From Panicum virgatum (taxonomy: Eukaryota > Streptophyta > Magnoliopsida > Poales > Poaceae), in the NCBI RefSeq assembly GCF_016808335.1, contig NC_053146.1:9865015-9929014 (forward strand): DNA of 64,000 bases. The letters run 5' to 3'. The notes under the pieces are model-generated. The model had not been told where the DNA came from. It saw only the letters and a program-made list of their open reading frames with translations, and searched no databases. How positions within the stretch are numbered: position 1 is the first letter of the stretch; every line of letters begins with the position of its first letter. Shown here one piece after another: positions 20,730-48,449 of this stretch. The position numbers were made by a program, and so were the translations under genes.

Positions 20730-20744
20730 GACCGCGAGGTTTCT

Positions 20745-22718: not shown

Positions 22719-22721
22719 GAA

Positions 22722-26581: not shown

Positions 26582-27069
26582 TTACAATGGGCCTCGAGGC
26601 CCAACTTTCCTACAGGCTACCATCCCCCCTTGCGGGTCTTCAGGGGCGTCGAATTCGGCGATGGGAGGGATGTCTGCCTCGAGCTTCTCGGCGAGAACGG
26701 TGGCGAACTCCTCCGCGGCTGCGTCGGCTTCATCCATAATGGCCGATGCGGCGTCCGCGTCAGCGTCATCGGGAACGACGTACCCCGACGACACCCTCTG
26801 GAGATCCATGAGGTAATGCGTCGAGGCGACGGCGAGAGCCCGAAGGACACCAAGGCGGAAGGTGCTCTTGGCATGCTCGGCAATCTGACCGCCTAGCGCG
26901 CGCAGGCGGCTGATCACCGAACTGCCTGATACGGCACCCTCCCCCTCGAGCTCTTGACACACGCTCACGGCGGTCTGCTCCAGCTCGGCAAACTCCATCT
27001 GTGCCGCCGTGAGCGCGGTGTGGACCGCTTCCTTCGCCGCGGTCTCGTCCGCCACCTTTTGCCTCAGCT

Positions 27070-27135
27070 CTGAGCAAAGGAAATCGACATTAGTCACAAA
27101 AGAAAACAAATCGACAAAAAATCGAAGGTACTCAC
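27070..27135 (-). other. 66-bp intron of the antisense gene
   Basis: Donor ACAG/GTGAGTACC and acceptor TTTGCTCAG/AGCTGAGG on the minus strand. The length is a multiple of three, so the frame also reads through if it is unspliced. Confidence 0.65.
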
Positions 27136-27673
27136 CTGTCATGTTATTCTGCGCTTCCTCCCTCTGGGTACGGGCGGCCTCTTCGAGCGAGGACAAGGAG
27201 GCTTCCTTCTCTCTAAGGGCGGCCCCCATGTTCTGGAGGGCCACTTCCTTCCCCTCGAGGGCCTCGCCCTTTTCCCGGAGGGTCCCGGTGAGCGCGACCA
27301 CGGCCACCTACTTATGGAGGAGCTCGGCCTTCTGCTGCTCGAGCGTCGTGCTGAGGCGCTGCAGCTTAGCGCTCTGCACCTCCGCCTCGCGAGCTCTCTC
27401 CTCGAGCGCCGTCCGAAGGCGCTGCAGCTCGGCAGTTTGCGCCTCGGCCTCCCGGGCCTTCTGCTCTGCTGCCGCCCTCTGGACGTCTCGCTCACCAGCA
27501 ACCCGCGCCAGCTCCTCCTCCAGCGCCTGCTGACGCGCTCCCAGATCGGCCATTTTTGTGTTGGCGTCGATATTTTTGAGCACTAGCTCGGCGTTGTGCT
27601 GCCCGAGCTGGCTCATCTGGGAGTACAGCCGGTTCATCTCGGTGCTCTTCTCGCGCGAGATTTCCCTCAGCTG

Positions 27674-27752
27674 CTGCAAAGGGGGAGGGCGTGGGTGAAG
27701 ACGCGTAAAAGCTAAAACCGAATCCGAGCAATTTCCGGGGGGAAATATTTAC
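27674..27752 (-). other. 79-bp intron of the antisense gene
   Basis: Donor GTCAGCCAG/GTAAATATT and acceptor CCTTTGCAG/CAGCTGAGG on the minus strand. Confidence 0.65.
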
Positions 27753-28084
27753 CTGGCTGACCTGGTAATCCGCATTCTGATGGAGCTGATAGGCGCGGTC
27801 GAGGGCCTGCAGGATCTCGCGACCGACGCCCATCTGCTTGTTCGAGGCCTCCTCCTCCTCCTGCTCCTTGCGGAGGAACTCCGAGGGGACCCCGGACGGG
27901 ACGATCGCCCCGAGGTGGCTCCCCTCGGACGCCCCCACTTCGAGCACGCCCGTGTTGGCCGACGCGAACTCGGCGATGTGTGCGGCAGCGCTCGCCGCAG
28001 CAGCGGGGTCGATGTCCATCGAATCCCCGTACTCCTCGCTGCTGTCCGGCAGCTCCACCACCGCTGTCACACCCCCTTGCGCCG

Positions 28085-28089
28085 TTGGC
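28085..28089 (+). repeat. Left TSD of the array (TTGGC)
   Basis: Identical to 47200-47204. Falls inside an exon of the element A antisense gene. Confidence 0.9.
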
Positions 28090-28296
28090 TGTCACACCCT
28101 GAAATTTTTGGATTTCAGGATGTGATTAAAATTAAAAATAAAACAACAATTTTCTCATAATTTTAAAATTTTTACAACATTTATTTTTCTTCACATGGAA
28201 TTTAGTAAAAATAAATAATTGGTTGTTTTTCTAAATCTAAATGAGGTTGTTTGTTTGCATTCATGCAGCTTTGCATTGTTTTATTGCTTGTGGTTT

Positions 28297-28333
28297 GATT
28301 TGAATTTAAATTCGTGGAGTTTAAATTCAAATC
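28297..28333 (+). repeat. Perfect 14-bp inverted repeat in the LTR
   Basis: GATTTGAATTTAAA (28297-28310) and its exact reverse complement TTTAAATTCAAATC (28320-28333) with a 9-base loop. It is present in all five LTRs at the same place. Confidence 0.9.
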
Positions 28334-28509
28334 GAATTTGTTTAAATCTTTTTGCAAAAAGAAAAATAGGAAAAATCTTTTCGACCAAAATTAACAGTTC
28401 GGCCCATTTCTCTTTTTCTTTTCTTCGCAGCCCAATCGCAATCCGATCCGCACCGGCCCAACCCAGACCCTTCTCTTGGCGCGCAAGCCAACAACTCTCC
28501 ATCGCCTCC

Positions 28510-28517
28510 TATATAAA
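28510..28517 (+). promoter_or_regulatory. LTR TATA box
   Basis: TATATAAA in a GC-rich context, about 420 bp into the LTR; repeated in LTR 2 (32659), LTR 3 (36815), LTR 4 (40968) and LTR 5 (45113). It is the likely U3 promoter of the element. Confidence 0.6.
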
Positions 28518-30593
28518 CACCGCCCCCCTGTTGTTTTTTTCGCGCAGCAAGCCATGCCGCCGCCGGCCCTAGGCCCCTCCCGCCGTTGCCCCCTGAGCGA
28601 GCCCCTCCTTTTCCCTGTGTGCATGCGCATGCGCTGCGCACCTGCAGGCCGCTGCTTTCCCCTGTGCGCCCAGGCAGCAGGACGCTGAATTCCTGTCCTG
28701 TGCTGCCCCCAGGCCGCCTGTTTCCCTGCCGTGTGCTGCTGGCTCCCATCGTCCCTGCCTGCTGCCTTGCATGCATGCACCTGCAGGCACAGGACCGTGC
28801 GTCCCTGCGCGCGCCGTGCCAGGCCACTGCAACCCCCTGCGCCGTTTCCTTCCTGCTGCGTGGCCGCTGCTGTTCCTTCCGGTTTCGATTCCGACCGTCT
28901 CGCCATGGCCAAGCGGTAAAACGGTTTCCCCTCGATCTCACCGTTTTAGATCCGTTTTTGTTCATTCTTGCTGCGTTAGTTTTGTTTTAGTGTAAGCTGT
29001 CGTTTAGTAGTGCTTTTAGATCGTAGATCTTGTTTTAAAGTAAATATAGATTTAATTTGTTTAATAACTATTTGAAACTAGCCTTTCTAATTAAAAGTAA
29101 ATTAGAGCTCTATACCGGTTTTCATTAATTAATGTTAATTCGATTAAATATCAACTTAAATGCATCTTTTATATAACTTGTTTAGAAGACCATGTATCAT
29201 AAAATTTTACACTTAGATGCTCTCACTTATCTTTTATTTGCTAGTTAAATAATTAATTGGTATAAGTCATACATAAACTTTATAAATAAAATTTGATTAA
29301 GTGCAACTTCATCTTTCTGATATAAATTCACATGAAATATTTATAATTTGGATATTTCTTTCAAATATCCTTTACATGTATTTTTTTTTCTTAATTAAAA
29401 TAAATCCAACTTATAGTTTCTTTCTGTTATAATATAAATCTTCCGATAGCTGTTTCTTTTCAACCGTAGCTTCGTTTTCCGCGTTTCTTGCGTTTTCGTA
29501 ACCGTAGCACCAAGCCCTATCCTTTAGAGCGTTCTTTCAAAGCCTTTCTTTTGTTTTGGTGTACTGTTCTTAGTCGTTCTTGTTATTTGCTTTGTATGTT
29601 TGCTCGGTGATTGCTCCGAGTAGGAGGATCGTTGTTCGAAGATTGAAGATCAAGTTTTCCATGCGAGCAAGAGCTAAAGAGCAGTAAGAGTAGCTTTCGT
29701 TGGAGAAAGTCAAGTGACCCTAACCATCTTTCTGTCTATGCTTATTTACAAGAGTATTATGATGATTTAATTGGAACATGGAGAACCACCCAAGAAAACC
29801 GTACAACCACAATACTATATGGCTCTGGTCTTGGCTTATTAATTAGAGACTCTAGCTTGTGACAATCTTACCGAAAGGGCAAGAGGGGATGCATCGACGG
29901 GGTATAGCTCGGTCCTCTTGGGGCAATTGGTATTGTTTAATGGTCCTTTGGCAAGGTACCACCTCATTAGGACAGTGTTATGACTGCTTTGGCTTGAAAC
30001 CTTAGCGGATTGTCATGGGTTAGGGAATCTTTGTAAAGGCCTCGTAGCGTCCCTATGCAATCACACCTCGAAAGTGTGGTATTGTGCCTAGCTAGCACAT
30101 TGCGTGGTTGGGTTCAAAGTTCTTCGGAATTTTTACGCGAATTGTGGTGAAAGTGTACAACCTCTGCAGAGTTAAAACTAACCGGTTAGCCGTGCTCACG
30201 GTCAAGAGCGGCTTGGACCCTCACATGATTAATAAACTTAAAGATGGATATAAATCACATTCTGGTTATTTCTTGTGGCCTTGCTGAGTACCAACCATAA
30301 GTGTACTCACCCTTGCTTACTGCTGCTCAGAAGGAGAAGGTGTATAAAGATTTCTGAAGATGTTGCTGAGTTCTAGGCGTACGCTACCCCCAGTCGATTG
30401 CCTGTGAAGTTTGGAGCCTTCGTTTCCAGGATAAGCTGTATAACTCTGATAGTCTTTTATTTGTTGTATTTCTCTTTTTCGTGATACTGTTACTGATTAT
30501 TCACTTATGATGTCTCTATATGTATGAAACTTGATCCTGGTATACATATAGTTATGCATTTGGTTTTATCCTTAAAACCGGGTGTGACAGAAG

Positions 30594-30605
30594 TGGTATC
30601 AGAGC
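30594..30605 (+). promoter_or_regulatory. Primer-binding site (initiator Met tRNA type)
   Basis: TGGTATCAGAGC, four bases after the LTR, is the standard plant PBS complementary to the 3' end of initiator Met tRNA. Repeated after LTRs 2, 3 and 4; absent after LTR 5, as expected for the last LTR. Confidence 0.9.
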
Positions 30606-32220
30606 TGTATCGACTGTAGGACGTAGCCTAGATAGCAATGGTCGCTTCCTAAGGTCTATTTAGTCACAAAAGCAATTCCTACTTTACCCTTGACCTCTTT
30701 GGTGAATAATTTCACTCTTTGACCATTTTCTTTCCTCAGTCAGCCTTGATAACTCACCTTTCTCTCCTGACTATCTTTTCATTTGCACTTCATTATTTTG
30801 CAAATGTTAGATCCTCAACCTGTCTATTTATTTATTTTCGTGGATCACTTCCTGAATTCGATCATACCTCCCCCTTGATGTATGATTTTCCAAATTTCAT
30901 CCAGCTCACCTCCTTTTGATACGCTGGTGAAGTTGCTCCTTTAAATTCTTTTTAACTTACCTTTTTGGACCTATCTCCCCTTTGCTTTATTTCACAATGT
31001 GCTCAGTGTCTCTCCTTTCTTTCCAAATAAATGCCGCTTTGGATTCATCCCTTGACTTTTGATTCCAAAGTATATGTTCTAATTCAAAAAAAATTTAGAT
31101 GATCCGTGCCCCGTGTCCTCATGCTTGTCCAAGTCATCTGAAGAATGGAGCTGCTAGTTCATCAAGAGCAACAATAAACAAGATGAGGGAGGCACATGCC
31201 ACCAACGCTGAAGCAGGAAGATATTCCCATGTTTAGGATGTCCCCTTCTAACACTATTAACAACGTTTAGCATCGTTCCTTGATCGTGTTGACTGGTGGA
31301 ATTCAGTGTTTGCATGATGATGCTTGTCTTTATGACCTTGTTTGATTCGCTTCTTTGTAATGATTGTCGGTGTATTGTGGGTCTTCTACCTACGATAACA
31401 TCGGTTGCCTAGAGGGGTTCTTTTGTACCTCCCACCTCCTTGTTATCCTCCGTCTTTTTACCTAATCCTTTAAAGGATGTCAAGAAAGAAGTTCATGGCA
31501 ACACTCGTCTACAATGATCAACAAATGAAAGAAACTGAAGACAAAAAAAATGCACTCTTTTCCTTTTTTTTTTGTTACCCCCATGTCTTTTCCCCCCTCC
31601 ACCTTGATTTATTTAAGTTGCGACTACCAAGAGTTGGTGAAAAGAAGGATGATGATCAACCCAAGAACCAAAGCTCCAATAGCCATTCACTCGGTCAGAC
31701 GTCATCAGTTGATCCCCTTGCCAAGACGGATGATCAGGATACCTCTGCCAAATGAGAATGCCATCAGTCTCCAATTCTCATGCCACCACGCGTCGCCAAG
31801 ATACTAAGCCAAGAAAATCATGTTTCTACAACGCAGTGGCTGCCTGAGGAGGTATGAAAATATCTGAACTTTATGGTTGGTTTATCTTCGTCACTTTACT
31901 TGAAGGTTATGAGATGTGTTTGTGGACTTGAGAAGTGATACCATATACTCAAGCCAGAAGAAGCAACTAAGCTCTATTCAAATCACTTTATCAAGGTACG
32001 AAGGATGTTCTTCGAAAGATGTGTCAACAAAGTTGTGGAAAGAATGGAAGTTAAAGGAGGAATTAGATTGAGTATCCGCGAAGTGTTTTGTGTGAGTTAT
32101 CAGGAATTAAGAAGAATACATTGCAAGAAGGAATAACTGAGAAGAAAGTTATATGTGTTGGATGCTACCCACCTAAACCTTTGTCTCTTGCTATCCTTGT
32201 GAATCTCGGGACGAGATTCC

Positions 32221-32238
32221 TTTTAAGGGGGGTAGTTC
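32221..32238 (+). promoter_or_regulatory. Polypurine tract of internal domain 1
   Basis: TTTTAAGGGGGGTAGTTC directly precedes LTR 2; it is the priming site for plus-strand DNA. The same tract precedes LTRs 3, 4 and 5. Confidence 0.85.
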
Positions 32239-34744
32239 TGTCACACCCTGAAATTTTTGGATTTCAGGATGTGATTAAAATTAAAAATAAAACAACAATT
32301 TTCTCATAATTTTAAAATTTTTACAACATTTATTTTTCTTCACATGGAATTTAGTAAAAATAAATAATTGGTTGTTTTTCTAAATCTAAATGAGGTTGTT
32401 TGTTTGCATTCATGCAGCTTTGCATTGTTTTATTGCTTGTGGTTTGATTTGAATTTAAATTCGTGGAGTTTAAATTCAAATCGAATTTGTTTGAATCTTT
32501 TTGCAAAAAGAAAAATAGGAAAAATCTTTTCGACCAAAATCAGCAGTCCGGCCCATTTCTCTTTTTCTTTTCTTCGCAGCCCAATCGCAATCCGATCCGC
32601 ACCGGCCCAACCCAGACCCTTCTCTTGGCGCGCAAGCCAACAACTCTCCATTGCCTCCTATATAAACACCGCCCCCCTGTTGTTTTTTTCGCGCAGCAAG
32701 CCATGCCGCCGCCGGCCCTAGGCCCCTCCCGCCGTTGCCCCCTGAGCGAGCCCCTCCTTTTCCCTGTGTGCATGCGCATGCGCATGCGCTGCGCACCTGC
32801 AGGCCGCTGCTTTCCCCTGTGCGCCCAGGCAGCAGGACGCTGAATTCCTGTCCTGTGCTGCCCCCAGGCCGCCTGTTTCCCTGCCGTGTGCTGCTGGCTC
32901 CCATCGTCCCTGCCTGCTGCCTTGCATGCATGCACCTGCAGGCACAGGACCGTGCGTCCCTGCGCGCGCCGTGCCAGGCCACTGCAACCCCCTGCGCCGT
33001 TTCCTTCCTGCTGCGTGGCCGCTGCTGTTCCTTCCGGTTTCGATTCCGACCGTCTCGCCATGGCCAAGCGGTAAAACGGTTTTCCCTCGATCTCACCGTT
33101 TTAGATCCGTTTTTGTTCATTCTTGCTGCGTTAGTTTTGTTTTAGTGTAAGCTATCGTTTAGTAGTGCTTTTAGATCGTAGATCTTGTTTTAAAGTAAAT
33201 ATAGATTTAATTTGTTTAATAACTATTTGAAACTAGCCTTTCTAATTAAAAGTAAATTAGAGCTCTATACCGGTTTTCATTAATTAATGTTAATTCGATT
33301 AAATATCAACTTAAATGCATCTTTTATATAACTTGTTTAGAAGACCATGTATCATAAAATTTTACACTTAGATGCTCTCACTTATCTTTTATTTGCTAGT
33401 TAAATAATTAATTGGTATAAGTCATACATAAACTTTATAAATAAAATTTGATTAAGTGCAACTTCATCTTTCTGATATAAATTCACATGAAATATTTATA
33501 ATTTGGATATTTCTTTCAAATATCCTTTACATGTATTTTTTTTTCTTAATTAAAATAAATCCAACTTATAGTTTCTTTCTGTTATAATATAAATCTTCCG
33601 ATAGCTGTTTCTTTTCAACCGTAGCTTCGTTTTCCGCGTTTCTTGCGTTTTCGTAACCGTAGCACCAAGCCCTATCCTTTAGAGCGTTCTTTCAAAGCCT
33701 TTCTTTTGTTTTGGTGTACTGTTCTTAGTCGTTCTTGTTATTTGCTTTGTATGTTTGCTCGGTGATTGCTCCGAGTAGGAGGATCGTTGTTCGAAGATTG
33801 AAGATCAAGTTTTCCATGCGAGCAAGAGCTAAAGAGCAGTAAGAGTAGCTTTCGTTGGAGAAAGTCAAGTGACCCTAACCATCTTTCTGTCTATGCTTAT
33901 TTACAAGAGTATTATGATGATTTAATTGGAACATGGAGAACCACCCAAGAAAACCGTACAACCACAATACTATATGGCTCTGGTCTTGGCTTATTAATTA
34001 GAGACTCTAGCTTGTGACAATCTTACCGAAAGGGCAAGAGGGGATGCATCGACGGGGTATAGCTCGGTCCTCTTGGGGCAATTGGTATTGTTTAATGGTC
34101 CTTTGGCAAGGTACCACCTCATTAGGACAGTGTTATGACTGCTTTGGCTTGAAACCTTAGCGGATTGTCATGGGTTAGGGAATCTTTGTAAAGGCCTCGT
34201 AGCGTCCCTATGCAATCACACCTCGAAAGTGTGGTATTGTGCCTAGCTAGCACATTGCGTGGTTGGGTTCAAAGTTCTTCGGAATTTTTACGCGAATTGT
34301 GGTGAAAGTGTACAACCTCTGCAGAGTTAAAACTAACCGGTTAGCCGTGCTCACGGTCAAGAGCGGCTTGGACCCTCACATGATTAATAAACTTAAAGAT
34401 GGATATAAATCACATTCTGGTTATTTCTTGTGGCCTTGCTGAGTACCAACCATAAGTGTACTCACCCTTGCTTACTGCTGCTCAGAAGGAGAAGGTGTAT
34501 AAAGATTTCTGAAGATGTTGCTGAGTTCTAGGCGTACGCTACCCCCAGTCGATTGCCTGTGAAGTTTGGAGCCTTCGTTTCCAGGATAAGCTGTATAACT
34601 CTGATAGTCTTTTATTTGTTGTATTTCTCTTTTTCGTGATACTGTTACTGATTATTCACTTATGATGTCTCTATATGTATGAAACTTGATCCTGGTATAC
34701 ATATAGTTATGCATTCGGTTTTATCCTTAAAACCGGGTGTGACA
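32239..34744 (+). repeat. Array LTR 2 (2,506 bp)
   Basis: Three ATGCGC units. Private variant CTCCATTGCC near 32648, where the other LTRs have CTCCATCGCC. Shares CGGTTTTCCC with LTRs 4 and 5. Confidence 0.95.
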
Positions 34745-36394
34745 GAAGTGGTATCAGAGCTGTATCGACTGTAGGACGTAGCCTAGATAGCAATGGTCGC
34801 TTCCTAAGGTCTATTTAGTCACAAAAGCAATTCCTACTTTACCCTTGACCTCTTTGGTGAATAATTTCACTCTTTGACCATTTTCTTTCCTCAGTCAGCC
34901 TTGATAACTCACCTTTCTCTCCTGACTATCTTTTCATTTGCACTTCATTATTTTGCAAATGTTAGATCCTCAACCTGTCTATTTATTTATTTTCGTGGAT
35001 CACTTCCTGAATTCGGTCATACCTCCCCCTTGATGTATGATTTTCCAAATTTCATCCAGCTCACCTCCTTTTGATACGCTGGTGAAGTTGCTCCTTTAAA
35101 TTCTTTTTAACTTACCTTTTTGGACCTATCTCCCCTTTGCTTTATTTCACAATGTGCTCAGTGTCTCTCCTTTCTTTCCAAATAAATGCCGCTTTGGATT
35201 CATCCCTTGACTTTTGATTCCAAAGTATATGTTCTAATTCAAAAAAAAATTTAGATGATCCGTGCCCCGTGTCCTCATGCTTGTCCAAGTCATCTGAAGA
35301 ATGGAGCTGCTAGTTCATCAAGAGCAACAATAAACAAGATGAGGGAGGCACATGCCACCAACGCTGAAGCAGGAAGATATTCCCATGTTTAGGATGTCCC
35401 CTTCTAACACTATTAACAACGTTTAGCATCGTTCCTTGATCGTGTTGACTGGTGGAATTCAGTGTTTGCATGATGATGCTTGTCTTTATGACCTTGTTTG
35501 ATTCGCTTCTTTGTAATGATTGTCGGTGTATTGTGGGTCTTCTACCTACGATAACATCGGTTGCCTAGAGGGGTTCTTTTGTACCTCCCACCTCCTTGTT
35601 ATCCTCCGTCTTTTTACCTAATCCTTTAAAGGATGTCAAGAAAGAAGTTCATGGCAACACTCGTCTACAATGATCAACAAATGAAAGAAACTGAAGACAA
35701 AAAAAATGCACTCTTTTCCTTTTTTTTTTGTTACCCCCATGTCTTTTCCCCCCTCCACCTTGATTTATTTAAGTTGCGACTACCAAGAGTTGGTGAAAAG
35801 AAGGATGATGATCAACCCAAGAACCAAAGCTCCAATAGCCATTCACTCGGTCAGACGTCATCAGTTGATCCCCTTGCCAAGACGGATGATCAGGATACCT
35901 CTGCCAAATGAGAATGCCATCAGTCTCCAATTCTCATGCCACCACGCGTCGCCAAGATACTAAGCCAAGAAAATCATGTTTCTACAACGCAGTGGCTGCC
36001 TGAGGAGGTATGAAAATATCTGAACTTTATGGTTGGTTTATCTTCGTCACTTTACTTGAAGGTTATGAGATGTGTTTGTGGACTTGAGAAGTGATACCAT
36101 ATACTCAAGCCAGAAGAAGCAACTAAGCTCTATTCAAATCACTTTATCAAGGTACGAAGGATGTTCTTCGAAAGATGTGTCAACAAAGTTGTGGAAAGAA
36201 TGGAAGTTAAAGGAGGAATTAGATTGAGTATCCGCGAAGTGTTTTGTGTGAGTTATCAGGAATTAAGAAGAATACATTGCAAGAAGGAATAACTGAGAAG
36301 AAAGTTATATGTGTTGGATGCTACCCACCTAAACCTTTGTCTCTTGCTATCCTTGTGAATCTCGGGACAAGATTCCTTTTAAGGGGGGTAGTTC
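34745..36394 (+). other. Array internal domain 2 (1,650 bp)
   Basis: Near-identical to domain 1. Private changes: ATTCGGTCATACC (others ATTCGATCATACC) and GGGACAAGATTCC near the 3' end (others GGGACGAGATTCC). It shares a run of ten T with domain 1. Confidence 0.92.
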
Positions 36395-38889
36395 TGTCAC
36401 ACCCTGAAATTTTTGGATTTCAGGATGTGATTAAAATTAAAAATAAAACAACAATTTTCTCATAATTTTAAAATTTTTACAACATTTATTTTTCTTCACA
36501 TGGAATTTAGTAAAAATAAATAATTGGTTGTTTTTCTAAATCTAAATGAGGTTGTTTGTTTGCATTCATGCAGCTTTGCATTGTTTTATTGCTTGTGGTT
36601 TGATTTGAATTTAAATTCGTGGAGTTTAAATTCAAATCGAATTTGTTTGAATCTTTTTGCAAAAAGAAAAATAGGAAAAATCTTTTCGACCAAAATCAGC
36701 AGTCCGGCCCATTTCTCTTTTTCTTTTCTTCGCAGCCCAATCGCAATCCGATCCGCACCGGCCCAACCCAGACCCTTCTCTTGGCGCGCAAGCCAACAAC
36801 TCTCCATCGCCTCCTATATAAACACCGCCCCCCTGTTGTTTTTTTCGCGCAGCAAGCCATGCCGCCGCCGGCCCTAGGCCCCTCCCGCCGTTGCCCCCTG
36901 AGCGAGCCCCTCCTTTTCCCTGTGTGCATGCGCATGCGCATGCGCAGGCCGCTGCTTTCCCCTGTGCGCCCAGGCAGCAGGACGCTGAATTCCTGTCCTG
37001 TGCTGCCCCCAGGCCGCCTGTTTCCCTGCCGTGTGCTGCTGGCTCCCATCGTCCCTGCCTGCTGCCTTGCATGCATGCACCTGCAGGCACAGGACCGTGC
37101 GTCCCTGCGCGCGCCGTGCCAGGCCACTGCAACCCCCTGCGCCGTTTCCTTCCTGCTGCGTGGCCGCTGCTGTTCCTTCCGGTTTCGATTCCGACCGTCT
37201 CGCCATGGCCAAGCGGTAAAACGGTTTCCCCTCGATCTCACCGTTTTAGATCCGTTTTTGTTCATTCTTGCTGCGTTAGTTTTGTTTTAGTGTAAGCTAT
37301 CGTTTAGTAGTGCTTTTAGATCGTAGATCTTGTTTTAAAGTAAATATAGATTTAATTTGTTTAATAACTATTTGAAACTAGCCTTTCTAATTAAAAGTAA
37401 ATTAGAGCTCTATACCGGTTTTCATTAATTAATGTTAATTCGATTAAATATCAACTTAAATGCATCTTTTATATAACTTGTTTAGAAGACCATGTATCAT
37501 AAAATTTTACACTTAGATGCTCTCACTTATCTTTTATTTGCTAGTTAAATAATTAATTGGTATAAGTCATACATAAACTTTATAAATAAAATTTGATTAA
37601 GTGCAACTTCATCTTTCTGATATAAATTCACATGAAATATTTATAATTTGGATATTTCTTTCAAATATCCTTTACATGTATTTTTTTTTCTTAATTAAAA
37701 TAAATCCAACTTATAGTTTCTTTCTGTTATAATATAAATCTTCCGATAGCTGTTTCTTTTCAACCGTAGCTTCGTTTTCCGCGTTTCTTGCGTTTTCGTA
37801 ACCGTAGCACCAAGCCCTATCCTTTAGAGCGTTCTTTCAAAGCCTTTCTTTTGTTTTGGTGTACTGTTCTTAGTCGTTCTTGTTATTTGCTTTGTATGTT
37901 TGCTCGGTGATTGCTCCGAGTAGGAGGATCGTTGTTCGAAGATTGAAGATCAAGTTTTCCATGCGAGCAAGAGCTAAAGAGCAGTAAGAGTAGCTTTCGT
38001 TGGAGAAAGTCAAGTGACCCTAACCATCTTTCTGTCTATGCTTATTTACAAGAGTATTATGATGATTTAATTGGAACATGGAGAACCACCCAAGAAAACC
38101 GTACAACCACAATACTATATGGCTCTGGTCTTGGCTTATTAATTAGAGACTCTAGCTTGTGACAATCTTACCGAAAGGGCAAGAGGGGATGCATCGACGG
38201 GGTATAGCTCGGTCCTCTTGGGGCAATTGGTATTGTTTAATGGTCCTTTGGCAAGGTACCACCTCATTAGGACAGTGTTATGACTGCTTTGGCTTGAAAC
38301 CTTAGCAGATTGTCATGGGTTAGGGAATCTTTGTAAAGGCCTCGTAGCGTCCCTATGCAATCACACCTCGAAAGTGTGGTATTGTGCCTAGCTAGCACAT
38401 TGCGTGGTTGGGTTCAAAGTTCTTCGGAATTTTTACGCGAATTGTGGTGAAAGTGTACAACCTCTGCAGAGTTAAAACTAACCGGTTAGCCGTGCTCACG
38501 GTCAAGAGCGGCTTGGACCCTCACATGATTAATAAACTTAAAGATGGATATAAATCACATTCTGGTTATTTCTTGTGGCCTTGCTGAGTACCAACCATAA
38601 GTGTACTCACCCTTGCTTACTGCTGCTCAGAAGGAGAAGGTGTATAAAGATTTCTGAAGATGTTGCTGAGTTCTAGGCGTACGCTACCCCCAGTCGATTG
38701 CCTGTGAAGTTTGGAGCCTTCGTTTCCAGGATAAGCTGTATAACTCTGATAGTCTTTTATTTGTTGTATTTCTCTTTTTCGTGATACTGTTACTGATTAT
38801 TCACTTATGATGTCTCTATATGTATGAAACTTGATCCTGGTATACATATAGTTATGCATTCGGTTTTATCCTTAAAACCGGGTGTGACA
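36395..38889 (+). repeat. Array LTR 3 (2,495 bp)
   Basis: Lacks an 11-bp CTGCGCACCTG-type segment after the ATGCGC units (near 36943) that the other four LTRs keep. Shares CTTAGCAGATTG with LTR 4 only, and CGGTTTCCCC with LTR 1 only. Confidence 0.95.
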
Positions 38890-40537
38890 GAAGTGGTATC
38901 AGAGCTGTATCGACTGTAGGACGTAGCCTAGATAGCAATGGTCGCTTCCTAAGGTCTATTTAGTCACAAAAGCAATTCCTACTTTACCCTTGACCTCTTT
39001 GGTGAATAATTTCACTCTTTGACCATTTTCTTTCCTCAGTCAGCCTTGATAACTCACCTTTCTCTCCTGACTATCTTTTCATTTGCACTTCATTATTTTG
39101 CAAATGTTAGATCCTCAACCTGTCTATTTATTTATTTTCGTGGATCACTTCCTGAATTCGATCATACCTCCCCCTTGATGTATGATTTTCCAAATTTCAT
39201 CCAGCTCACCTCCTTTTGATACGCTGGTGAAGTTGCTCCTTTAAATTCTTTTTAACTTACCTTTTTGGACCTATCTCCCCTTTGCTTTATTTCACAATGT
39301 GCTCAGTGTCTCTCCTTTCTTTCCAAATAAATGCCGCTTTGGATTCATCCCTTGACTTTTGATTCCAAAGTATATGTTCTAATTCAAAAAAAAATTTAGA
39401 TGATCCGTGCCCCGTGTCCTCATGCTTGTCCAAGTCATCTGAAGAATGGAGCTGCTAGTTCATCAAGAGCAACAATAAACAAGATGAGGGAGGCACATGC
39501 CACCAACGCTGAAGCAGGAAGATATTCCCATGTTTAGGATGTCCCCTTCTAACACTATTAACAACGTTTAGCATCGTTCCTTGATCGTGTTGACTGGTGG
39601 AATTCAGTGTTTGCATGATGATGCTTGTCTTTATGACCTTGTTTGATTCGCTTCTTTGTAATGATTGTCGGTGTATTGTGGGTCTTCTACCTACGATAAC
39701 ATCGGTTGCCTAGAGGGGTTCTTTTGTACCTCCCACCTCCTTGTTATCCTCCGTCTTTTTACCTAATCCTTTAAAGGATGTCAAGAAAGAAGTTCATGGC
39801 AACACTCGTCTACAATGATCAACAAATGAAAGAAACTGAAGACAAAAAAATGCACTCTTTTCCTTTTTTTTTGTTACCCCCATGTCTTTTCCCCCCTCCA
39901 CCTTGATTTATTTAAGTTGCGACTACCAAGAGTTGGTGAAAAGAAGGATGATGATCAACCCAAGAACCAAAGCTCCAATAGCCATTCACTCGGTCAGACG
40001 TCATCAGTTGATCCCCTTGCCAAGACGGATGATCAGGATACCTCTGCCAAATGAGAATGCCATCAGTCTCCAATTCTCATGCCACCACGCGTCGCCAAGA
40101 TACTAAGCCAAGAAAATCATGTTTCTACAACGCAGTGGCTGCCTGAGGAGGTATGAAAATATCTGAACTTTATGGTTGGTTTATCTTCGTCACTTTACTT
40201 GAAGGTTATGAGATGTGTTTGTGGACTTGAGAAGTGATACCATATACTCAAGCCAGAAGAAGCAACTAAGCTCTATTCAAATCACTTTATCAAGGTACGA
40301 AGGATGTTCTTCGAAAGATGTGTCAACAAAGTTGTGGAAAGAATGGAAGTTAAAGGAGGAATTAGATTGAGTATCCGCGAAGTGTTTTGTGTGAGTTATC
40401 AGGAATTAAGAAGAATACATTGCAAGAAGGAATAACTGAGAAGAAAGTTATATGTGTTGGATGCTACCCACCTAAACCTTTGTCTCTTGCTATCCTTGTG
40501 AATCTCGGGACGAGATTCCTTTTAAGGGGGGTAGTTC
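38890..40537 (+). other. Array internal domain 3 (1,648 bp)
   Basis: Has one A fewer in the GACAAAAAAA run than the other domains, and a run of nine T shared with domain 4. These indels break the 92-residue frame seen in domains 1 and 2. Confidence 0.92.
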
Positions 40538-43043
40538 TGTCACACCCTGAAATTTTTGGATTTCAGGATGTGATTAAAATTAAAAATAAAACAACAATTT
40601 TCTCATAATTTTAAAATTTTTACAACATTTATTTTTCTTCACATGGAATTTAGTAAAAATAAATAATTGGTTGTTTTTCTAAATCTAAATGAGGTTGTTT
40701 GTTTGCATTCATGCAGCTTTGCATTGTTTTATTGCTTGTGGTTTGATTTGAATTTAAATTCGTGGAGTTTAAATTCAAATCGAATTTGTTTGAATCTTTT
40801 TGCAAAAAGAAAAATAGGAAAAATCTTTTCGACCAAAATCAGCAGTCCGGCCCATTTCTCTTTTTCTTTTCTTCGCAGCCCAATCGCAATCCGATCCGCA
40901 CCGGCCCAACCCAGACCCTTCTCTTGGCGCGCAAGCCAACAACTCTCCATCGCCTCCTATATAAACACCGCCCCCCTGTTGTTTTTTTCGCGCAGCAAGC
41001 CATGCCGCCGCCGGCCCTAGGCCCCTCCCGCCGTTGCCCCCTGAGCGAGCCCCTCCTTTTCCCTGTGTGCATGCGCATGCGCATGCGCTGCGCACCTGCA
41101 GGCCGCTGCTTTCCCCTGTGCGCCCAGGCAGCAGGACGCTGAATTCCTGTCCTGTGCTGCCCCCAGGCCGCCTGTTTCCCTGCCGTGTGCTGCTGGCTCC
41201 CATCGTCCCTGCCTGCTGCCTTGCATGCATGCACCTGCAGGCACAGGACCGTGCGTCCCTGCGCGCGCCGTGCCAGGCCACTGCAACCCCCTGCGCCGTT
41301 TCCTTCCTGCTGCGTGGCCGCTGCTGTTCCTTCCGGTTTCGATTCCGACCGTCTCGCCATGGCCAAGCGGTAAAACGGTTTTCCCTCGATCTCACCGTTT
41401 TAGATCCGTTTTTGTTCATTCTTGCTGCGTTAGTTTTGTTTTAGTGTAAGCTATCGTTTAGTAGTGCTTTTAGATCGTAGATCTTGTTTTAAAGTAAATA
41501 TAGATTTAATTTGTTTAATAACTATTTGAAACTAGCCTTTCTAATTAAAAGTAAATTAGAGCTCTATACCGGTTTTCATTAATTAATGTTAATTCGATTA
41601 AATATCAACTTAAATGCATCTTTTATATAACTTGTTTAGAAGACCATGTATCATAAAATTTTACACTTAGATGCTCTCACTTATCTTTTATTTGCTAGTT
41701 AAATAATTAATTGGTATAAGTCATACATAAACTTTATAAATAAAATTTGATTAAGTGCAACTTCATCTTTCTGATATAAATTCACATGAAATATTTATAA
41801 TTTGGATATTTCTTTCAAATATCCTTTACATGTATTTTTTTTTCTTAATTAAAATAAATCCAACTTATAGTTTCTTTCTGTTATAATATAAATCTTCCGA
41901 TAGCTGTTTCTTTTCAACCGTAGCTTCGTTTTCCGCGTTTCTTGCGTTTTCGTAACCGTAGCACCAAGCCCTATCCTTTAGAGCGTTCTTTCAAAGCCTT
42001 TCTTTTGTTTTGGTGTACTGTTCTTAGTCGTTCTTGTTATTTGCTTTGTATGTTTGCTCGGTGATTGCTCCGAGTAGGAGGATCGTTGTTCGAAGATTGA
42101 AGATCAAGTTTTCCATGCGAGCAAGAGCTAAAGAGCAGTAAGAGTAGCTTTCGTTGGAGAAAGTCAAGTGACCCTAACCATCTTTCTGTCTATGCTTATT
42201 TACAAGAGTATTATGATGATTTAATTGGAACATGGAGAACCACCCAAGAAAACCGTACAACCACAATACTATATGGCTCTGGTCTTGGCTTATTAATTAG
42301 AGACTCTAGCTTGTGACAATCTTACCGAAAGGGCAAGAGGGGATGCATCGACGGGGTATAGCTCGGTCCTCTTGGGGCAATTGGTATTGTTTAATGGTCC
42401 TTTGGCAAGGTACCACCTCATTAGGACAGTGTTATGACTGCTTTGGCTTGAAACCTTAGCAGATTGTCATGGGTTAGGGAATCTTTGTAAAGGCCTCGTA
42501 GCGTCCCTATGCAATCACACCTCGAAAGTGTGGTATTGTGCCTAGCTAGCACATTGCGTGGTTGGGTTCAAAGTTCTTCGGAATTTTTACGCGAATTGTG
42601 GTGAAAGTGTACAACCTCTGCAGAGTTAAAACTAACCGGTTAGCCGTGCTCACGGTCAAGAGCGGCTTGGACCCTCACATGATTAATAAACTTAAAGATG
42701 GATATAAATCACATTCTGGTTATTTCTTGTGGCCTTGCTGAGTACCAACCATAAGTGTACTCACCCTTGCTTACTGCTGCTCAGAAGGAGAAGGTGTATA
42801 AAGATTTCTGAAGATGTTGCTGAGTTCTAGGCGTACGCTACCCCCAGTCGATTGCCTGTGAAGTTTGGAGCCTTCGTTTCCAGGATAAGCTGTATAACTC
42901 TGATAGTCTTTTATTTGTTGTATTTCTCTTTTTCGTGATACTGTTACTGATTATTCACTTATGATGTCTCTATATGTATGAAACTTGATCCTGGTATACA
43001 TATAGTTATGCATTCGGTTTTATCCTTAAAACCGGGTGTGACA
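40538..43043 (+). repeat. Array LTR 4 (2,506 bp)
   Basis: Shares CTTAGCAGATTG with LTR 3 and CGGTTTTCCC with LTRs 2 and 5. No private change noticed. Confidence 0.95.
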
Positions 43044-44692
43044 GAAGTGGTATCAGAGCTGTATCGACTGTAGGACGTAGCCTAGATAGCAATGGTCGCT
43101 TCCTAAGGTCTATTTAGTCACAAAAGCAATTCCTACTTTACCCTTGACCTCTTTGGTGAATAATTTCACTCTTTGACCATTTTCTTTCCTCAGTCAGCCT
43201 TGATAACTCACCTTTCTCTCCTGACTATCTTTTCATTTGCACTTCATTATTTTGCAAATGTTAGATCCTCAACCTGTCTATTTATTTATTTTCGTGGATC
43301 ACTTCCTGAATTCGATCATACCTCCCCCTTGATGTATGATTTTCCAAATTTCATCCAGCTCACCTCCTTTTGATACGCTGGTGAAGTTGCTCCTTTAAAT
43401 TCTTTTTAACTTACCTTTTTGGACCTATCTCCCCTTTGCTTTATTTCACAATGTGCTCAGTGTCTCTCCTTTCTTTCCAAATAAATGCCGCTTTGGATTC
43501 ATCCCTTGACTTTTGATTCCAAAGTATATGTTCTAATTCAAAAAAAAATTTAGATGATCCGTGCCCCGTGTCCTCATGCTTGTCCAAGTCATCTGAAGAA
43601 TGGAGCTGCTAGTTCATCAAGAGCAACAATAAACAAGATGAGGGAGGCACATGCCACCAACGCTGAAGCAGGAAGATATTCCCATGTTTAGGATGTCCCC
43701 TTCTAACACTATTAACAACGTTTAGCATCGTTCCTTGATCGTGTTGACTGGTGGAATTCAGTGTTTGCATGATGATGCTTGTCTTTATGACCTTGTTTGA
43801 TTCGCTTCTTTGTAATGATTGTCGGTGTATTGTGGGTCTTCTACCTACGATAACATCGGTTGCCTAGAGGGGTTCTTTTGTACCTCCCACCTCCTTGTTA
43901 TCCTCCGTCTTTTTACCTAATCCTTTAAAGGATGTCAAGAAAGAAGTTCATGGCAACACTCGTCTACAATGATCAACAAATGAAAGAAACTGAAGACAAA
44001 AAAAATGCACTCTTTTCCTTTTTTTTTGTTACCCCCATGTCTTTTCCCCCCTCCACCTTGATTTATTTAAGTTGCGACTACCAAGAGTTGGTGAAAAGAA
44101 GGATGATGATCAACCCAAGAACCAAAGCTCCAATAGCCATTCACTCGGTCAGACGTCATCAGTTGATCCCCTTGCCAAGACGGATGATCAGGATACCTCT
44201 GCCAAATGAGAATGCCATCAGTCTCCAATTCTCATGCCACCACGCGTCGCCAAGATACTAAGCCAAGAAAATCATGTTTCTACAACGCAGTGGCTGCCTG
44301 AGGAGGTATGAAAATATCTGAACTTTATGGTTGGTTTATCTTCGTCACTTTACTTGAAGGTTATGAGATGTGTTTGTGGACTTGAGAAGTGATACCATAT
44401 ACTCAAGCCAGAAGAAGCAACTAAGCTCTATTCAAATCACTTTATCAAGGTACGAAGGATGTTCTTCGAAAGATGTGTCAACAAAGTTGTGGAAAGAATG
44501 GAAGTTAAAGGAGGAATTAGATTGAGTATCCGCGAAGTGTTTTGTGTGAGTTATCAGGAATTAAGAAGAATACATTGCAAGAAGGAATAACTGAGAAGAA
44601 AGTTATATGTGTTGGATGCTACCCACCTAAACCTTTGTCTCTTGCTATCCTTGTGAATCTCGGGACGAGATTCCTTTTAAGGGGGGTAGTTC
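43044..44692 (+). other. Array internal domain 4 (1,649 bp)
   Basis: Nine-T run shared with domain 3, which here fuses the small frame into a 109-residue ORF (43932-44261). This shows that the frame is not under constraint. Confidence 0.92.
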
Positions 44693-47199
44693 TGTCACAC
44701 CCTGAAATTTTTGGATTTCAGGATGTGATTAAAATTAAAAATAAAACAACAATTTTCTCATAATTTTAAAATTTTTACAACATTTATTTTTCTTCACATG
44801 GAATTTAGTAAAAATAAATAATTGGTTGTTTTTCTAAATCTAAATGAGGTTGTTTGTTTGCATTCATGCAGCTTTGCATTGTTTTATTGCTTGTGGTTTG
44901 ATTTGAATTTAAATTCGTGGAGTTTAAATTCAAATCGAATTTGTTTGAATCTTTTTGCAAAAAGAAAAATAGGAAAAATCTTTTCGACCAAAATCAGCAG
45001 TCCGGCCCATTTCTCTTTTTCTTTTCTTCGCAGCCCAATCGCAATCCGATCCGCACCGGCCCAACCCAGACCCTTCTCTTGGCGCGCAAGCCAACAACTC
45101 TCCATCGCCTCCTATATAAACACCGCCCCCCTGTTGTTTTTTTCGCGCAGCAAGCCATGCCGCCGCCGGCCCTAGGCCCCTCCCGCCGTTGCCCCCTGAG
45201 CGAGCCCCTCCTTTTCCCTGTGTGCATGCGCATGCGCATGCGCTGCGCACCTGCAGGCCGCTGCTTTCCCCTGTGCGCCCAGGCAGCAGGACGCTGAATT
45301 CCTGTCCTGTGCTGCCCCCAGGCCGCCTGTTTCCCTGCCGTGTGCTGCTGGCTCCCATCGTCCCTGCCTGCTGCCTTGCATGCATGCACCTGCAGGCACA
45401 GGACCGTGCGTCCCTGCGCGCGCCGTGCCAGGCCACTGCAACCCCCTGCGCCGTTTCCTTCCTGCTGCGTGGCCGCTGCTGTTCCTTCCGGTTTCGATTC
45501 CGACCGTCTCGCCATGGCCAAGCGGTAAAACGGTTTTCCCTCGATCTCACCGTTTTAGATCCGTTTTTGTTCATTCTTGCTGCGTTAGTTTTGTTTTAGT
45601 GTAAGCTATCGTTTAGTAGTGCTTTTAGATCGTAGATCTTGTTTTAAAGTAAATATAGATTTAATTTGTTTAATAACTATTTGAAACTAGCCTTTCTAAT
45701 TAAAAGTAAATTAGAGCTCTATACCGGTTTTCATTAATTAATGTTAATTCGATTAAATATCAACTTAAATGCATCTTTTATATAACTTGTTTAGAAGACC
45801 ATGTATCATAAAATTTTACACTTAGATGCTCTCACTTATCTTTTATTTGCTAGTTAAATAATTAATTGGTATAAGTCATACATAAACTTTATAAATAAAA
45901 TTTGATTAAGTGCAACTTCATCTTTCTGATATAAATTCACATGAAATATTTATAATTTGGATATTTCTTTCAAATATCCTTTACATGTATTTTTTTTTTC
46001 TTAATTAAAATAAATCCAACTTATAGTTTCTTTCTGTTATAATATAAATCTTCCGATAGCTGTTTCTTTTCAACCGTAGCTTCGTTTTCCGCGTTTCTTG
46101 CGTTTTCGTAACCGTAGCACCAAGCCCTATCCTTTAGAGCGTTCTTTCAAAGCCTTTCTTTTGTTTTGGTGTACTGTTCTTAGTCGTTCTTGTTATTTGC
46201 TTTGTATGTTTGCTCGGTGATTGCTCCGAGTAGAAGGATCGTTGTTCGAAGATTGAAGATCAAGTTTTCCATGCGAGCAAGAGCTAAAGAGCAGTAAGAG
46301 TAGCTTTCGTTGGAGAAAGGCAAGTGACCCTAACCATCTTTCTGTCTATGCTTATTTACAAGAGTATTATGATGATTTAATTGGAACATGGAGAACCACC
46401 CAAGAAAACCGTACAACCACAATACTATATGGCTCTGGTCTTGGCTTATTAATTAGAGACTCTAGCTTGTGACAATCTTACCGAAAGGGCAAGAGGGGAT
46501 GCATCGACGGGGTATAGCTCGGTCCTCTTGGGGCAATTGGTATTGTTTAATGGTCCTTTGGCAAGGTACCACCTCATTAGGACAGTGTTATGACTGCTTT
46601 GGCTTGAAACCTTAGCGGATTGTCATGGGTTAGGGAATCTTTGTAAAGGCCTCGTAGCGTCCCTATGCAATCACACCTCGGAAGTGTGGTATTGTGCCTA
46701 GCTAGCACATTGCGTGGTTGGGTTCAAAGTTCTTCGGAATTTTTACGCGAATTGTGGTGAAAGTGTACAACCTCTGCAGAGTTAAAACTAACCGGTTAGC
46801 CGTGCTCACGGTCAAGAGCGGCTTGGACCCTCACATGATTAATAAACTTAAAGATGGATATAAATCACATTCTGGTTATTTCTTGTGGCCTTGCTGAGTA
46901 CCAACCATAAGTGTACTCACCCTTGCTTACTGCTGCTCAGAAGGAGAAGGAGTATAAAGATTTCTGAAGATGTTGCTGAGTTCTAGGCGTACGCTACCCC
47001 CAGTCGATTGCCTGTGAAGTTTGGAGCCTTCGTTTCCAGGATAAGCTGTATAACTCTGATAGTCTTTTATTTGTTGTATTTCTCTTTTTCGTGATACTGT
47101 TACTGATTATTCACTTATGATGTCTCTATATGTATGAAACTTGATCCTGGTATACATATAGTTATGCATTCGGTTTTATCCTTAAAACCGGGTGTGACA
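44693..47199 (+). repeat. Array LTR 5 (2,507 bp)
   Basis: The last LTR, followed directly by TSD TTGGC with no PBS. Private variants include GAGTAGAAGGATC, GAGAAAGGCAAG, CACCTCGGAAGTG and AAGGAGTATAAAG. Confidence 0.95.
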
Positions 47200-47204
47200 T
47201 TGGC
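47200..47204 (+). repeat. Right TSD of the array (TTGGC)
   Basis: Identical to 28085-28089. Confidence 0.9.
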
Positions 47205-47770
47205 TCAGGCACTACCACAACGGTACCCTCGTCTAGGGCCTCCGCGGGCCCCGAAACAGGGGCTCCTTCCACCGTCGGCGCCTCTTGCGCCGTACCATCC
47301 TCCGCGACGCCCCCACCCTCGGCCCTCGAGGGCTCGAAGACAAGGGTCTCCTCAACACGAACGGCAGGGCGCTCCTGCGCGCCCCCACCGGTCTCTCCTT
47401 CAGTACCGGTCGGGCGGCGCTGGCCACGTCGCCCTGACCAGCCTCAACTTCGATGGCCGCCTGGGCAGTGCCACCGACACTGCCCTGGCCGGCGCCACCG
47501 ACAATGCCCTGGCTGGCCTTTTCGCCGGCATCGGCCGCCTGAGCAGCCGCTTCGGCACCACGCTGGCCGGCGTCGCCCTCCTCCTCCTGTGCCCGGGCTT
47601 GCTGCGCCGCCTGGGCCCCTCGAGCCATGGCCTCCCGTAGCCTAGTGGCCGCCGCCTCGAGATCCATGGCGGGCTGGGGCTGCGGCGCCGTGTGCGGAGT
47701 GCTGCATGCCCCGGTCTTGAGAGCCTTGGCCGGGGCAAGCCGCACTGCATCCTTGGGAACGGCCCCGGGG

Positions 47771-47850
47771 CTGGAAATCAAGAGGCGCGAGTTGAGCAGG
47801 ATCGAGAAATCCACCAAATACGTAACAAAAACGAAATTCAAAATACTTAC
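47771..47850 (-). other. 80-bp intron of the antisense gene
   Basis: Donor GAGCTGG/GTAAGTATT and acceptor TGATTTCCAG/CCCCGGGG on the minus strand. Confidence 0.65.
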
Positions 47851-48449
47851 CCAGCTCGAGCACTCATGCTCCGCTTCCTCGTGGCGCTCCTTCGAGCCCG
47901 GGGCATCGTGTTGTCCCTCGAAGACCGCTCCGAAGGCGCCCCCCTCGTGTCGGCCCGATGGCTCGAGGCTACCAGCACGGACGACTCCTCTCCCGCCGCA
48001 GTCTCATCGCCACGGATCAGCACCTGGGGCGCGGGCGTCTCCTCGCCGGCCACCGGCGGGGGTGACTCCCGCGCCGCACCCTCGAGGGAGGGATTCGCCG
48101 ATGGCCCCGCTACGGCCCTCGGCTCCTCTGGCGCCACAGTTGCTCCCTCTTCTTCGTCCCACAGGTAGAACGGTGGGGGGCTCGCGCCCTCCCCGTCCCT
48201 CCTCAGAGAATGGTCCTCGGCGTCCGAGGCCTCCTCCTCGTCCTCCTCCGAGGACTCGGGTGTGGCGGGCTGCGGCTTCCCCTCCGCGCGAGCGAGCTTG
48301 CACGCCTTGTCGTGCCTCGCCTTCCTCTTCCTTTTCCTCTCGGCCTTCGTCTCCACCGCGTCCTTCCGCCTCTTCATCTTCTCCGCGTGGAGGCGATTGA
48401 TCAGGCGCTGTTCTGGGACCGGGGGCCTCGAGGTGCCGCACCTCAACCC

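What the first reader, a model, noticed from the sequence alone, without database searches (positions are those of the whole stretch)
28090..47199. Five-LTR, four-unit tandem retrotransposon array inside one TSD pair
The sequence directly shows LTR-int-LTR-int-LTR-int-LTR-int-LTR over 19.1 kb with a single TTGGC duplication around the whole. Each internal unit has its own PBS and PPT. Ordinary nested or adjacent insertion would leave TSDs at each element; there are none between units. So the array either grew in place by unequal LTR-LTR recombination or integrated as a multimer. LTR-RT tandems of two or three LTRs are known; four complete internal units in a row is unusual.
Basis: partly seen in the sequence, partly recalled or inferred. 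Interest (0 to 1): 0.85.

Follow-up and report, generated by a model that had tools for sequence, protein, structure and literature searches.

The report
Five-LTR retrotransposon array grown in place
A single jumping-gene insertion in a grass chromosome, very probably switchgrass, has multiplied where it sits into five end-repeats and four middles, and the pattern of small mutations indicates that it grew after landing rather than arriving as a chain.

Summary
Confirmed. Window 28090-47199 is LTR-int-LTR-int-LTR-int-LTR-int-LTR inside one TTGGC duplication, with a PBS and a PPT in each unit. The empty site is continuous in paralogues of the host element (40 of 40 scored places). The element is a non-coding Ty3/gypsy derivative (LTR 2.5 kb, internal 1.65 kb).

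LTR1-4 share three derived bases that LTR5 lacks; left halves of LTR2-4 match LTR5, right halves LTR1, as an unequal LTR x LTR crossover predicts; the internals hold 2 substitutions where 14.5 are expected if as old as the outer LTR pair (P = 6e-5). So: one ordinary insertion, divergence of its LTRs, then growth by unequal recombination.

Tandem LTR retrotransposons are known (seven LTRs in Wukong, 13 in Cassandra), so this is a large, well-resolved member of a known kind. Its value is mechanistic: a 2025 rice study left this choice open. A second complete array in this genome fits weakly; a third does not. The unit number still needs spanning reads.

The parts
28085..28089 (.). TSD, left copy TTGGC
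   Evidence: absent from all inner LTR borders
28090..30589 (+). LTR1 (2500 bp), original 5' LTR; carries derived 1542G, 1628T, 1989A (alignment columns) and private changes on its left half
30590..32238 (+). INT1 (1649 bp, non-coding), PBS core 30594-30605, PPT 32225-32235
32239..34744 (+). LTR2 (2506 bp), hybrid: left like LTR5, right like LTR1; private 414T
34745..36394 (+). INT2 (1650 bp), PBS core 34749-34760, PPT 36381-36391; the only internal with private substitutions (2)
36395..38889 (+). LTR3 (2495 bp), hybrid; private 11-bp deletion; shares 1925A with LTR4
38890..40537 (+). INT3 (1648 bp), PBS core 38894-38905, PPT 40524-40534; shares a T-run length with INT4
40538..43043 (+). LTR4 (2506 bp), hybrid; shares 1925A with LTR3
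43044..44692 (+). INT4 (1649 bp), PBS core 43048-43059, PPT 44679-44689
44693..47199 (+). LTR5 (2507 bp), original 3' LTR; ancestral at 1542, 1628, 1989
47200..47204 (.). TSD, right copy TTGGC
18580..52259 (.). Host element A (Ty3/gypsy: gag, RT and RNase H frames, and a weak integrase match below Pfam's cut-off) into which the array is inserted; limits set only by a 189-bp, 97.9% match between its ends
   Evidence: the ends were not worked out fully

Best explanation
One non-autonomous Ty3/gypsy element (LTR about 2.5 kb, internal 1.65 kb) inserted once at TTGGC inside element A. Shown: its two original LTRs (now LTR1 and LTR5) have diverged, and LTR2-4 share derived bases with LTR1 on the right while matching LTR5 on the left. 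Inferred: sister chromatids or homologues paired out of register, the 3' LTR of one with the 5' LTR of the other, and a crossover in the LTR, between alignment columns 916 and 1298 (or 1542 if a T-run is ignored), gave LTR1-int-hybrid-int-LTR5. Further unequal exchanges between the now homologous 4.15-kb units raised this to five LTRs. The last duplication made units 3 and 4 (shared 1925A; shared T-run length in INT3/4). At a rice LTR rate of 1.3e-8 (recalled), LTR1/LTR5 divergence (11/2500) dates the insertion to about 0.17 My; inner LTRs differ by 1-3 and internals by 0-2 substitutions, so growth is several times younger.
For: (1) Columns 1542, 1628 and 1989: LTR1-4 carry G, T, A and LTR5 carries A, G, G; relatives carry LTR5's base in 30 of 30, 31 of 31 and 28 of 29 LTR copies (copies from at most 17 fetched places, the LTRs of one element counted apart, so not independent). 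Shared derived bases in LTR1-4 mean that LTR2-4 descend there from LTR1 after it had split from LTR5. (2) Left 1-1100: LTR2-4 differ from LTR5 by 1, 1, 0 and from LTR1 by 7, 5, 6; right 1101-2507: from LTR5 by 4, 5, 5 and from LTR1 by 1, 2, 2. At the 13 differences between LTR1 and LTR5 (each indel counted once), LTR4 matches LTR5 seven times, then LTR1 five times, then LTR5 once: runs test P = 0.010. (3) The four internals hold 2 substitutions in all against 14.5 expected if as old as LTR1/LTR5: P = 6e-5. (4) Single TSD, and continuous empty site in paralogues of element A. (5) A 3-LTR array at C18:7.04 Mb with TSD ATCCT has the same orientation of differences and one shared derived site in LTR1+LTR2; weak.
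Against: Column 2479 (LTR1 odd one out on the right) needs a later LTR1 mutation; column 845 (C in LTR1 and LTR3) needs a conversion or a parallel change. On the left half the substitutions that set LTR1 apart are mostly new in LTR1, so descent of the inner left halves from LTR5 rests on near-identity and not on firm shared derived bases; the 6-bp GCATGC duplication shared by LTR2-5 is of unclear polarity, and so is 845. If the clustered sites 303-310 are counted as one and the T-run 1298 is dropped, the runs test is 0.048 and the rank test for left/right segregation 0.095 (against 0.024 with all sites). Another complete 3-LTR array, at C6:28.36 Mb, lacks this signature: its internals differ by 9 substitutions and its outer LTRs by 8, and the middle LTR is the most divergent. 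No reads were seen.
Confidence: 0.8

Rival explanations
1. The array integrated as a ready-made multimer (tandem transcript or concatenated cDNA) and was partly homogenised afterwards by gene conversion.
For: A single TSD fits it equally well. PMC11899658 proposes tandem transcripts from one-LTR circles (discussion). The C6:28.36 Mb array, whose parts look about equally old, would fit it.
Against: Without exchange all five LTRs start identical, so 1542, 1628 and 1989 would each need four parallel changes and 1925 two (arithmetic), and the internals hold 2 substitutions against 14.5 expected (P = 6e-5). With exchange it needs conversions that homogenised four internals and the right halves of LTR1-4 but spared LTR5 on the right and LTR1 on the left.
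Confidence: 0.08
2. Self-copy: a cDNA or one-LTR circle made from this very locus recombined back into one of its LTRs. Reverse transcription also makes LTRs whose left part (U3) comes from the 3' LTR and whose right part (R-U5) comes from the 5' LTR.
For: The orientation of the hybrid is the one that reverse transcription predicts (established retroelement replication, recalled). A TATA box lies at LTR position 421. In yeast, integrase-independent integration into existing elements is reported (as cited in PMC11899658).
Against: The expected switch is at the transcription start, about column 450 (inferred from the TATA box); the observed switch lies after 916. Between them 532-537, 845 (LTR2 and LTR4) and 916 follow LTR5, though none of these is a firm shared derived state. 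It also needs the cDNA to come from this one copy in a family whose next relatives are at best 96-98% alike in the stretches searched.
Confidence: 0.07
3. The unit number is wrong in the assembly (reads mis-joined, or two haplotypes merged).
For: The individual taken to be the source is outbred and its haplotypes were pruned to one (PMC7886653, passages). Units are 99.6% alike.
Against: No N in the window. Each LTR is distinct (LTR2 414T, LTR3 11-bp deletion, LTR4 1925A without that deletion), and INT2 has two private substitutions. PacBio figures in the paper give a mean of about 20 kb per read if its yield and read number belong together, near the array length of 19.1 kb.
Confidence: 0.05

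Closest known systems
Tandem LTR-retrotransposon insertions of rice (TLI1, TLI2; IDENTAM survey), PMC11899658, parts 1-4 of 6 of the text read
   Same: Alternating LTR and internal regions sharing inner LTRs, flanked by one short TSD; TLI2 has units 99% alike and sits inside another transposon, as here; in the rice pangenome Ty3/gypsy and above all Tekay elements are enriched.
   Different: TLI1 and TLI2 have three LTRs and two internals; all 28 selected rice tandems carry coding domains, this one does not. The authors could not tell complex insertion from recombination; here mutations shared between LTRs favour recombination after insertion.
Wukong TRIM of maize, PMC4528315 (passages and section 13 read)
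   Same: Multi-LTR elements with three, four, six and seven LTRs, ascribed to recombination; the abstract speaks of unequal crossing over.
   Different: Wukong is 532 bp with 230-bp LTRs; the unit here is 4.15 kb with 2.5-kb LTRs. [quoted passage not shown] here one insertion suffices.
Cassandra tandem arrays, PMC7215508 (passages read)
   Same: LTR-internal tandem arrays sharing LTRs; element without gag-pol; unequal crossing-over proposed for changes in repeat number.
   Different: Small units with a 5S promoter in the LTR; 13 LTRs inferred from a PCR fragment of about 6 kb; no single-locus mutation history in the passages read.
Solo LTR formation by LTR-LTR recombination (recalled)
   Same: Same exchange; the reciprocal product of growth.
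   Different: Deletion instead of duplication; no other individual could be examined for a solo-LTR allele of this site.

Membership tests
Tandem LTR-retrotransposon array sharing inner LTRs | Alternating LTR and internal regions, starting and ending with an LTR | tested here: met
Tandem LTR-retrotransposon array sharing inner LTRs | One TSD around the whole, none inside | tested here: met
   empty site continuous in 40 of 40 scored paralogous places, of 1122 candidates
Tandem LTR-retrotransposon array sharing inner LTRs | Confirmed by reads that span it | not testable with these tools
   no reads available
Tandem LTR-retrotransposon array sharing inner LTRs | Unit number differs between individuals (often so, not strictly defining) | not testable with these tools
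   no second assembly of this organism was offered by the tools
Ty3/gypsy, Tekay lineage | Own gag-pol with chromodomain-bearing integrase | tested here: not met
   internals have no open stretch above 110 codons
Ty3/gypsy, Tekay lineage | Kinship of LTR, PBS side and PPT side with a coding Ty3/gypsy element | tested here: met
   C6:43.72 Mb element shares 492 bp of LTR at 92%, 71 bp at the PBS side at 86% and 36 bp at the PPT side at 97%; it codes for gag, PR, RT, RNase H, integrase and an SH3_Tf2-1 domain. This supports Ty3/gypsy, not the lineage.
Ty3/gypsy, Tekay lineage | Chromodomain in the coding relative | tested here: inconclusive
   no chromodomain among the Pfam matches at E 0.001 in four frame pieces; no RT tree was made
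TRIM | Short LTRs and very small size | tested here: not met
   LTR 2495-2507 bp, unit about 4.15 kb

The most novel reading that the evidence does not exclude
The hybrid inner LTRs were made by reverse transcription, not by crossover: cDNA or a one-LTR circle transcribed from this locus recombined back into its own LTR, so that the array is a retrotransposon feeding copies into its own source site. The hybrid orientation fits; the position of the switch speaks against it but rests on sites of weak polarity.
Probability: 0.07. Interest if true: 0.65.

Novelty: new member of a known kind. Interest (0 to 1): 0.42.

Why it matters
Tandem LTR retrotransposons are common in plants, but the 2025 rice survey left open whether they arrive as multimers or grow after insertion (PMC11899658). 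This locus carries enough mutations to separate the two: the largest differences lie between the outermost LTRs, the inner LTRs are hybrids, and the middles are young. The same count can be made on any array with three or more LTRs. It also bears on LTR dating: here only the two outermost LTRs date the insertion, inner pairs date the growth. That one other array of the family (C6:28.36 Mb) lacks the signature makes the question testable genome-wide.

Tried and rejected
Nested or adjacent separate insertions: rejected, no TSD at inner borders and the host element is continuous across the site in paralogues. Recombination of two nearby insertions with loss of the sequence between: rejected by the same continuous empty site. 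Ectopic conversion of LTR5 by another family copy as the source of its ancestral bases: the nearest copies are 97-98% alike there, so a tract of about 450 bp (columns 1542-1989) would have brought some 9-13 differences; three set LTR5 apart there (arithmetic). Left-half polarity by the GCATGC duplication: one relative element (both of its LTRs, L015/L043) has LTR1's state, another (L044) has LTR5's length with other letters, so I do not use it as proof. Homopolymer indels (LTR column 1298; INT 497, 955, 976) are given little weight because indels were the main error class corrected in the assembly that I take this to be (80,199 against 690 SNPs, PMC7886653). Rank test on the position of LTR1-only and LTR5-only differences: P 0.024 with all sites, 0.095 with clustered sites merged and the T-run dropped; C18 array 0.036: weak, not relied on. 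Candidate tandems that were not complete arrays: C2:54.24 Mb holds two different elements; C2:33.59 and C4:23.82 Mb are internal fragment-LTR-int-LTR; C6:43.72 Mb has a second LTR followed by 204 bp of internal; C8:48.51 Mb is LTR-int-LTR plus a truncated internal and a further LTR end whose flanks (GGCAA, AGCAA) do not match exactly; these were not analysed for shared bases. Maize centromere paper PMC2776974 (passages) had nothing on the point.

Dropped rows and limits: alignments under 80 bp and under 60 bp were left out of the state counts. Junction lists are cut: 100 of 151 places shown (99 of them exact), 100 of 194, so array counts are lower bounds; genome DNA searches scored 40 candidates each.
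Full report
OBSERVATION. The array is real as read from the assembly. A self-comparison of the window aligns 28089-43043 with 32238-47199 at 99.64% over 14,975 columns, and shorter stretches at offsets of two, three and four units. Boundaries of five LTRs (2500, 2506, 2495, 2506, 2507 bp) and four internals (1649, 1650, 1648, 1649 bp) are exact: every LTR starts TGTCACACCC and ends GGGTGTGACA. At LTR borders TTGGC stands only at 28085-28089 and 47200-47204; inner borders are AGTTC before LTR2-5 and GAAGT after LTR1-4, the element's own PPT-side and PBS-side letters. Each unit has one PBS core TGGTATCAGAGC (initiator tRNA-Met type, recalled) and one PPT AAGGGGGGTAG.

WHERE. The window is C11:9865015-9929014 of a 1,129,937,113-base assembly in 627 contigs. 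Contigs 1 to 18 have coordinates of tens of Mb, C26 is 0.19 Mb. This fits switchgrass AP13 v5, given as 1,129.9 Mb in 18 chromosomes (626 contigs in the 5.0 release), PacBio assembled from an outbred plant and pruned to one haplotype (PMC7886653, passages read); the name is my inference, the genome itself bears none. The host, element A, is another Ty3/gypsy copy with gag, RT and RNase H frames and a weak integrase match. A 245-base query made of its two flanks with one TTGGC matched 40 of 40 scored places (of 1122 candidates) at 94-98%, all running across the junction: the empty site is continuous in paralogues, so nothing was lost or added around the array apart from the 5-bp duplication.

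WHAT THE ELEMENT IS. The internals have no open stretch above 110 codons, so the element is non-autonomous. Relatives exist in large number: 1229 candidates with the first 311 bases of the LTR (40 scored). The nearest copies outside the array are alike only over parts: INT 589-1649 is 98% alike at C3:60.24 Mb while INT 1-575 there is 70%, and INT 1-915 is 95% alike at C15:40.24 Mb. The founder thus looks like a mosaic of two sublineages. A coding element at C6:43.72 Mb shares 492 bp of LTR at 92%, the PBS side and the PPT side and encodes gag, protease, RT, RNase H, integrase and an SH3_Tf2-1 domain, which makes the family Ty3/gypsy. Tekay lineage is likely (recalled from LTR and PBS style, and the lineage enriched in the rice survey) but no chromodomain was found and no tree was made.

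MECHANISM. Differences among the five LTRs are few and ordered. LTR1 against LTR5: 11 substitutions, a 6-bp and a 1-bp indel. Inner LTRs among themselves: 1-3 substitutions. Internals among themselves: 0 or 2. At the 13 sites where LTR1 and LTR5 differ, LTR2 and LTR4 follow LTR5 at all seven sites up to column 916, LTR1 at all five sites from 1298 to 2259, and LTR5 again at 2479; LTR3 does the same except for column 845. Polarity comes from relatives: at 1542, 1628 and 1989 LTR5 has the base of 30 of 30, 31 of 31 and 28 of 29 relative LTR copies, and the further copies that cover these columns agree. Hence G, T and A at these columns are new and are shared by LTR1-4. LTR2-4 therefore took their right parts from LTR1 after LTR1 and LTR5 had begun to differ, that is after insertion. 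At 2259 LTR5 itself looks new (relatives T in 27 of 29; but the three LTRs of C6:28.36 Mb have LTR5's A).

On the left the inner LTRs differ from LTR5 by 1, 1 and 0 substitutions in 1100 columns but from LTR1 by 7, 5 and 6. Most of these look new in LTR1 (305: relatives G 19 of 19; 310: C 19 of 19; 916: A 13 of 14; 255: G 23 of 26; 303: C 15 of 19), so the left half is consistent with descent from LTR5 without proving it by itself. Column 845 is unclear: distant relatives mostly have C (12 of 13), the four closest copies over that stretch have T (L015, L043, L044, L045). Together the halves give the hybrid that an exchange between the 3' LTR of one chromatid and the 5' LTR of the other must leave in the middle. 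Runs test on LTR4: P = 0.010; with clustered sites merged and a T-run dropped 0.048.

Ages agree. If the internals were as old as the LTR1/LTR5 split, the four copies should hold about 14.5 substitutions of their own; they hold 2, both in INT2, P = 6e-5. LTR3 and LTR4 share a new A at 1925 (relatives G 13 of 15) and INT3 and INT4 share a T-run length, so units 3 and 4 look like the latest duplication. The insertion itself is young: 11/2500 gives about 0.17 My at 1.3e-8 per site and year (rate recalled).

OTHER ARRAYS. Among the listed PPT-LTR junctions (99 exact of 100 listed, of 151 in all), ten lie in four clusters on one strand within 6 kb of each other: this array (four) and pairs at C2:33.59, C4:23.82 and C18:7.04 Mb; the other 89 stand alone. 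PBS-side junctions (100 listed of 194) gave further pairs at C2:54.24, C6:28.37, C6:43.72 and C8:48.51 Mb. Of these seven other places, two are complete arrays with one TSD: C18 (3 LTRs, ATCCT) and C6:28.36 (3 LTRs, AGCTG). C18 shows LTR1-only changes mainly on the left and LTR3-only differences on the right, with one shared new base in LTR1+LTR2 (column 3188, relatives G 23 of 26), outer LTRs 7 substitutions apart in 3432 columns and internals 2 in 1783: compatible, weak. C6:28.36 does not fit: outer LTRs differ by 8 of 2690, internals by 9 of 2387, and the middle LTR has 12 substitutions that set it apart from both others; at 268 and 1016 LTR1 and LTR3 share a base where relatives have LTR2's (7 of 7 and 2 of 2), while at 1693 LTR2 and LTR3 share a base against 36 of 38 relatives. 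It may have arrived as a multimer, grown very early or exchanged with another copy. So in-place growth is the best reading of this window, not a rule for the family. No other cluster among the listed junctions has more than two, that is more than three LTRs.

LITERATURE. Tandem LTR retrotransposons sharing LTRs were surveyed in rice, Arabidopsis, almond and cotton (PMC11899658; text parts 1-4 of 6 read): Ty3/gypsy and in rice Tekay elements are enriched (no superfamily enrichment in almond or cotton), loci are polymorphic, and the authors state that they could not tell complex insertion from recombination. Maize Wukong has up to seven LTRs (PMC4528315, passages and section 13) and Cassandra up to 13 by PCR (PMC7215508, passages). 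I found no report that uses shared derived bases among the LTRs of one such array to decide the mechanism, in the searches (open-licence papers only; of the papers listed on tandem LTRs I read one in large part and two in passages, the rest as search listings).

LIMITS. No reads, no second haplotype, no other accession. Relative LTR counts are not independent. Homopolymer differences may be sequencing errors. The rank test of position is weak.

Noticed in passing
55890-64000: A second LTR element with LTRs of at least 2.61 kb (99.7% alike, beginning TGTAACACCC), cut by the window end; the one frame tested in its 2.9-kb internal has a zinc knuckle and an aspartyl protease.
   Followed up: partly
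30590-32238 and copies: The internal region is a mosaic: 589-1649 is 98% like C3:60.24 Mb where 1-575 is only 70% alike, and 1-915 is 95% like C15:40.24 Mb; the founder looks like a template-switch recombinant of two sublineages.
   Followed up: partly
L034/L035 (C6:28.36 Mb): A 3-LTR array with TSD AGCTG in which the middle LTR is the most divergent part and the outer two share two bases that the relatives examined lack; no sign of recent in-place growth.
   Followed up: partly
1513-3279: Minus-strand open frame of 588 codons with a Pif1-like helicase domain (E 1.7e-88), possibly part of a Helitron.
   Followed up: no
54723-55940: Open frame with a plant mobile domain (PF10536, E 3.9e-21), running up to the start of the second LTR element.
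   Followed up: no
48474-49484: Minus-strand open frame in element A with a Transposase_28 'putative gypsy type transposon' domain.
   Followed up: no
32476-33141, 40775-41440, 44930-45595: LTR2, LTR4 and LTR5 each hold a 221-codon minus-strand open stretch (stop to stop); the one tested (LTR2) has no Pfam match.
   Followed up: partly
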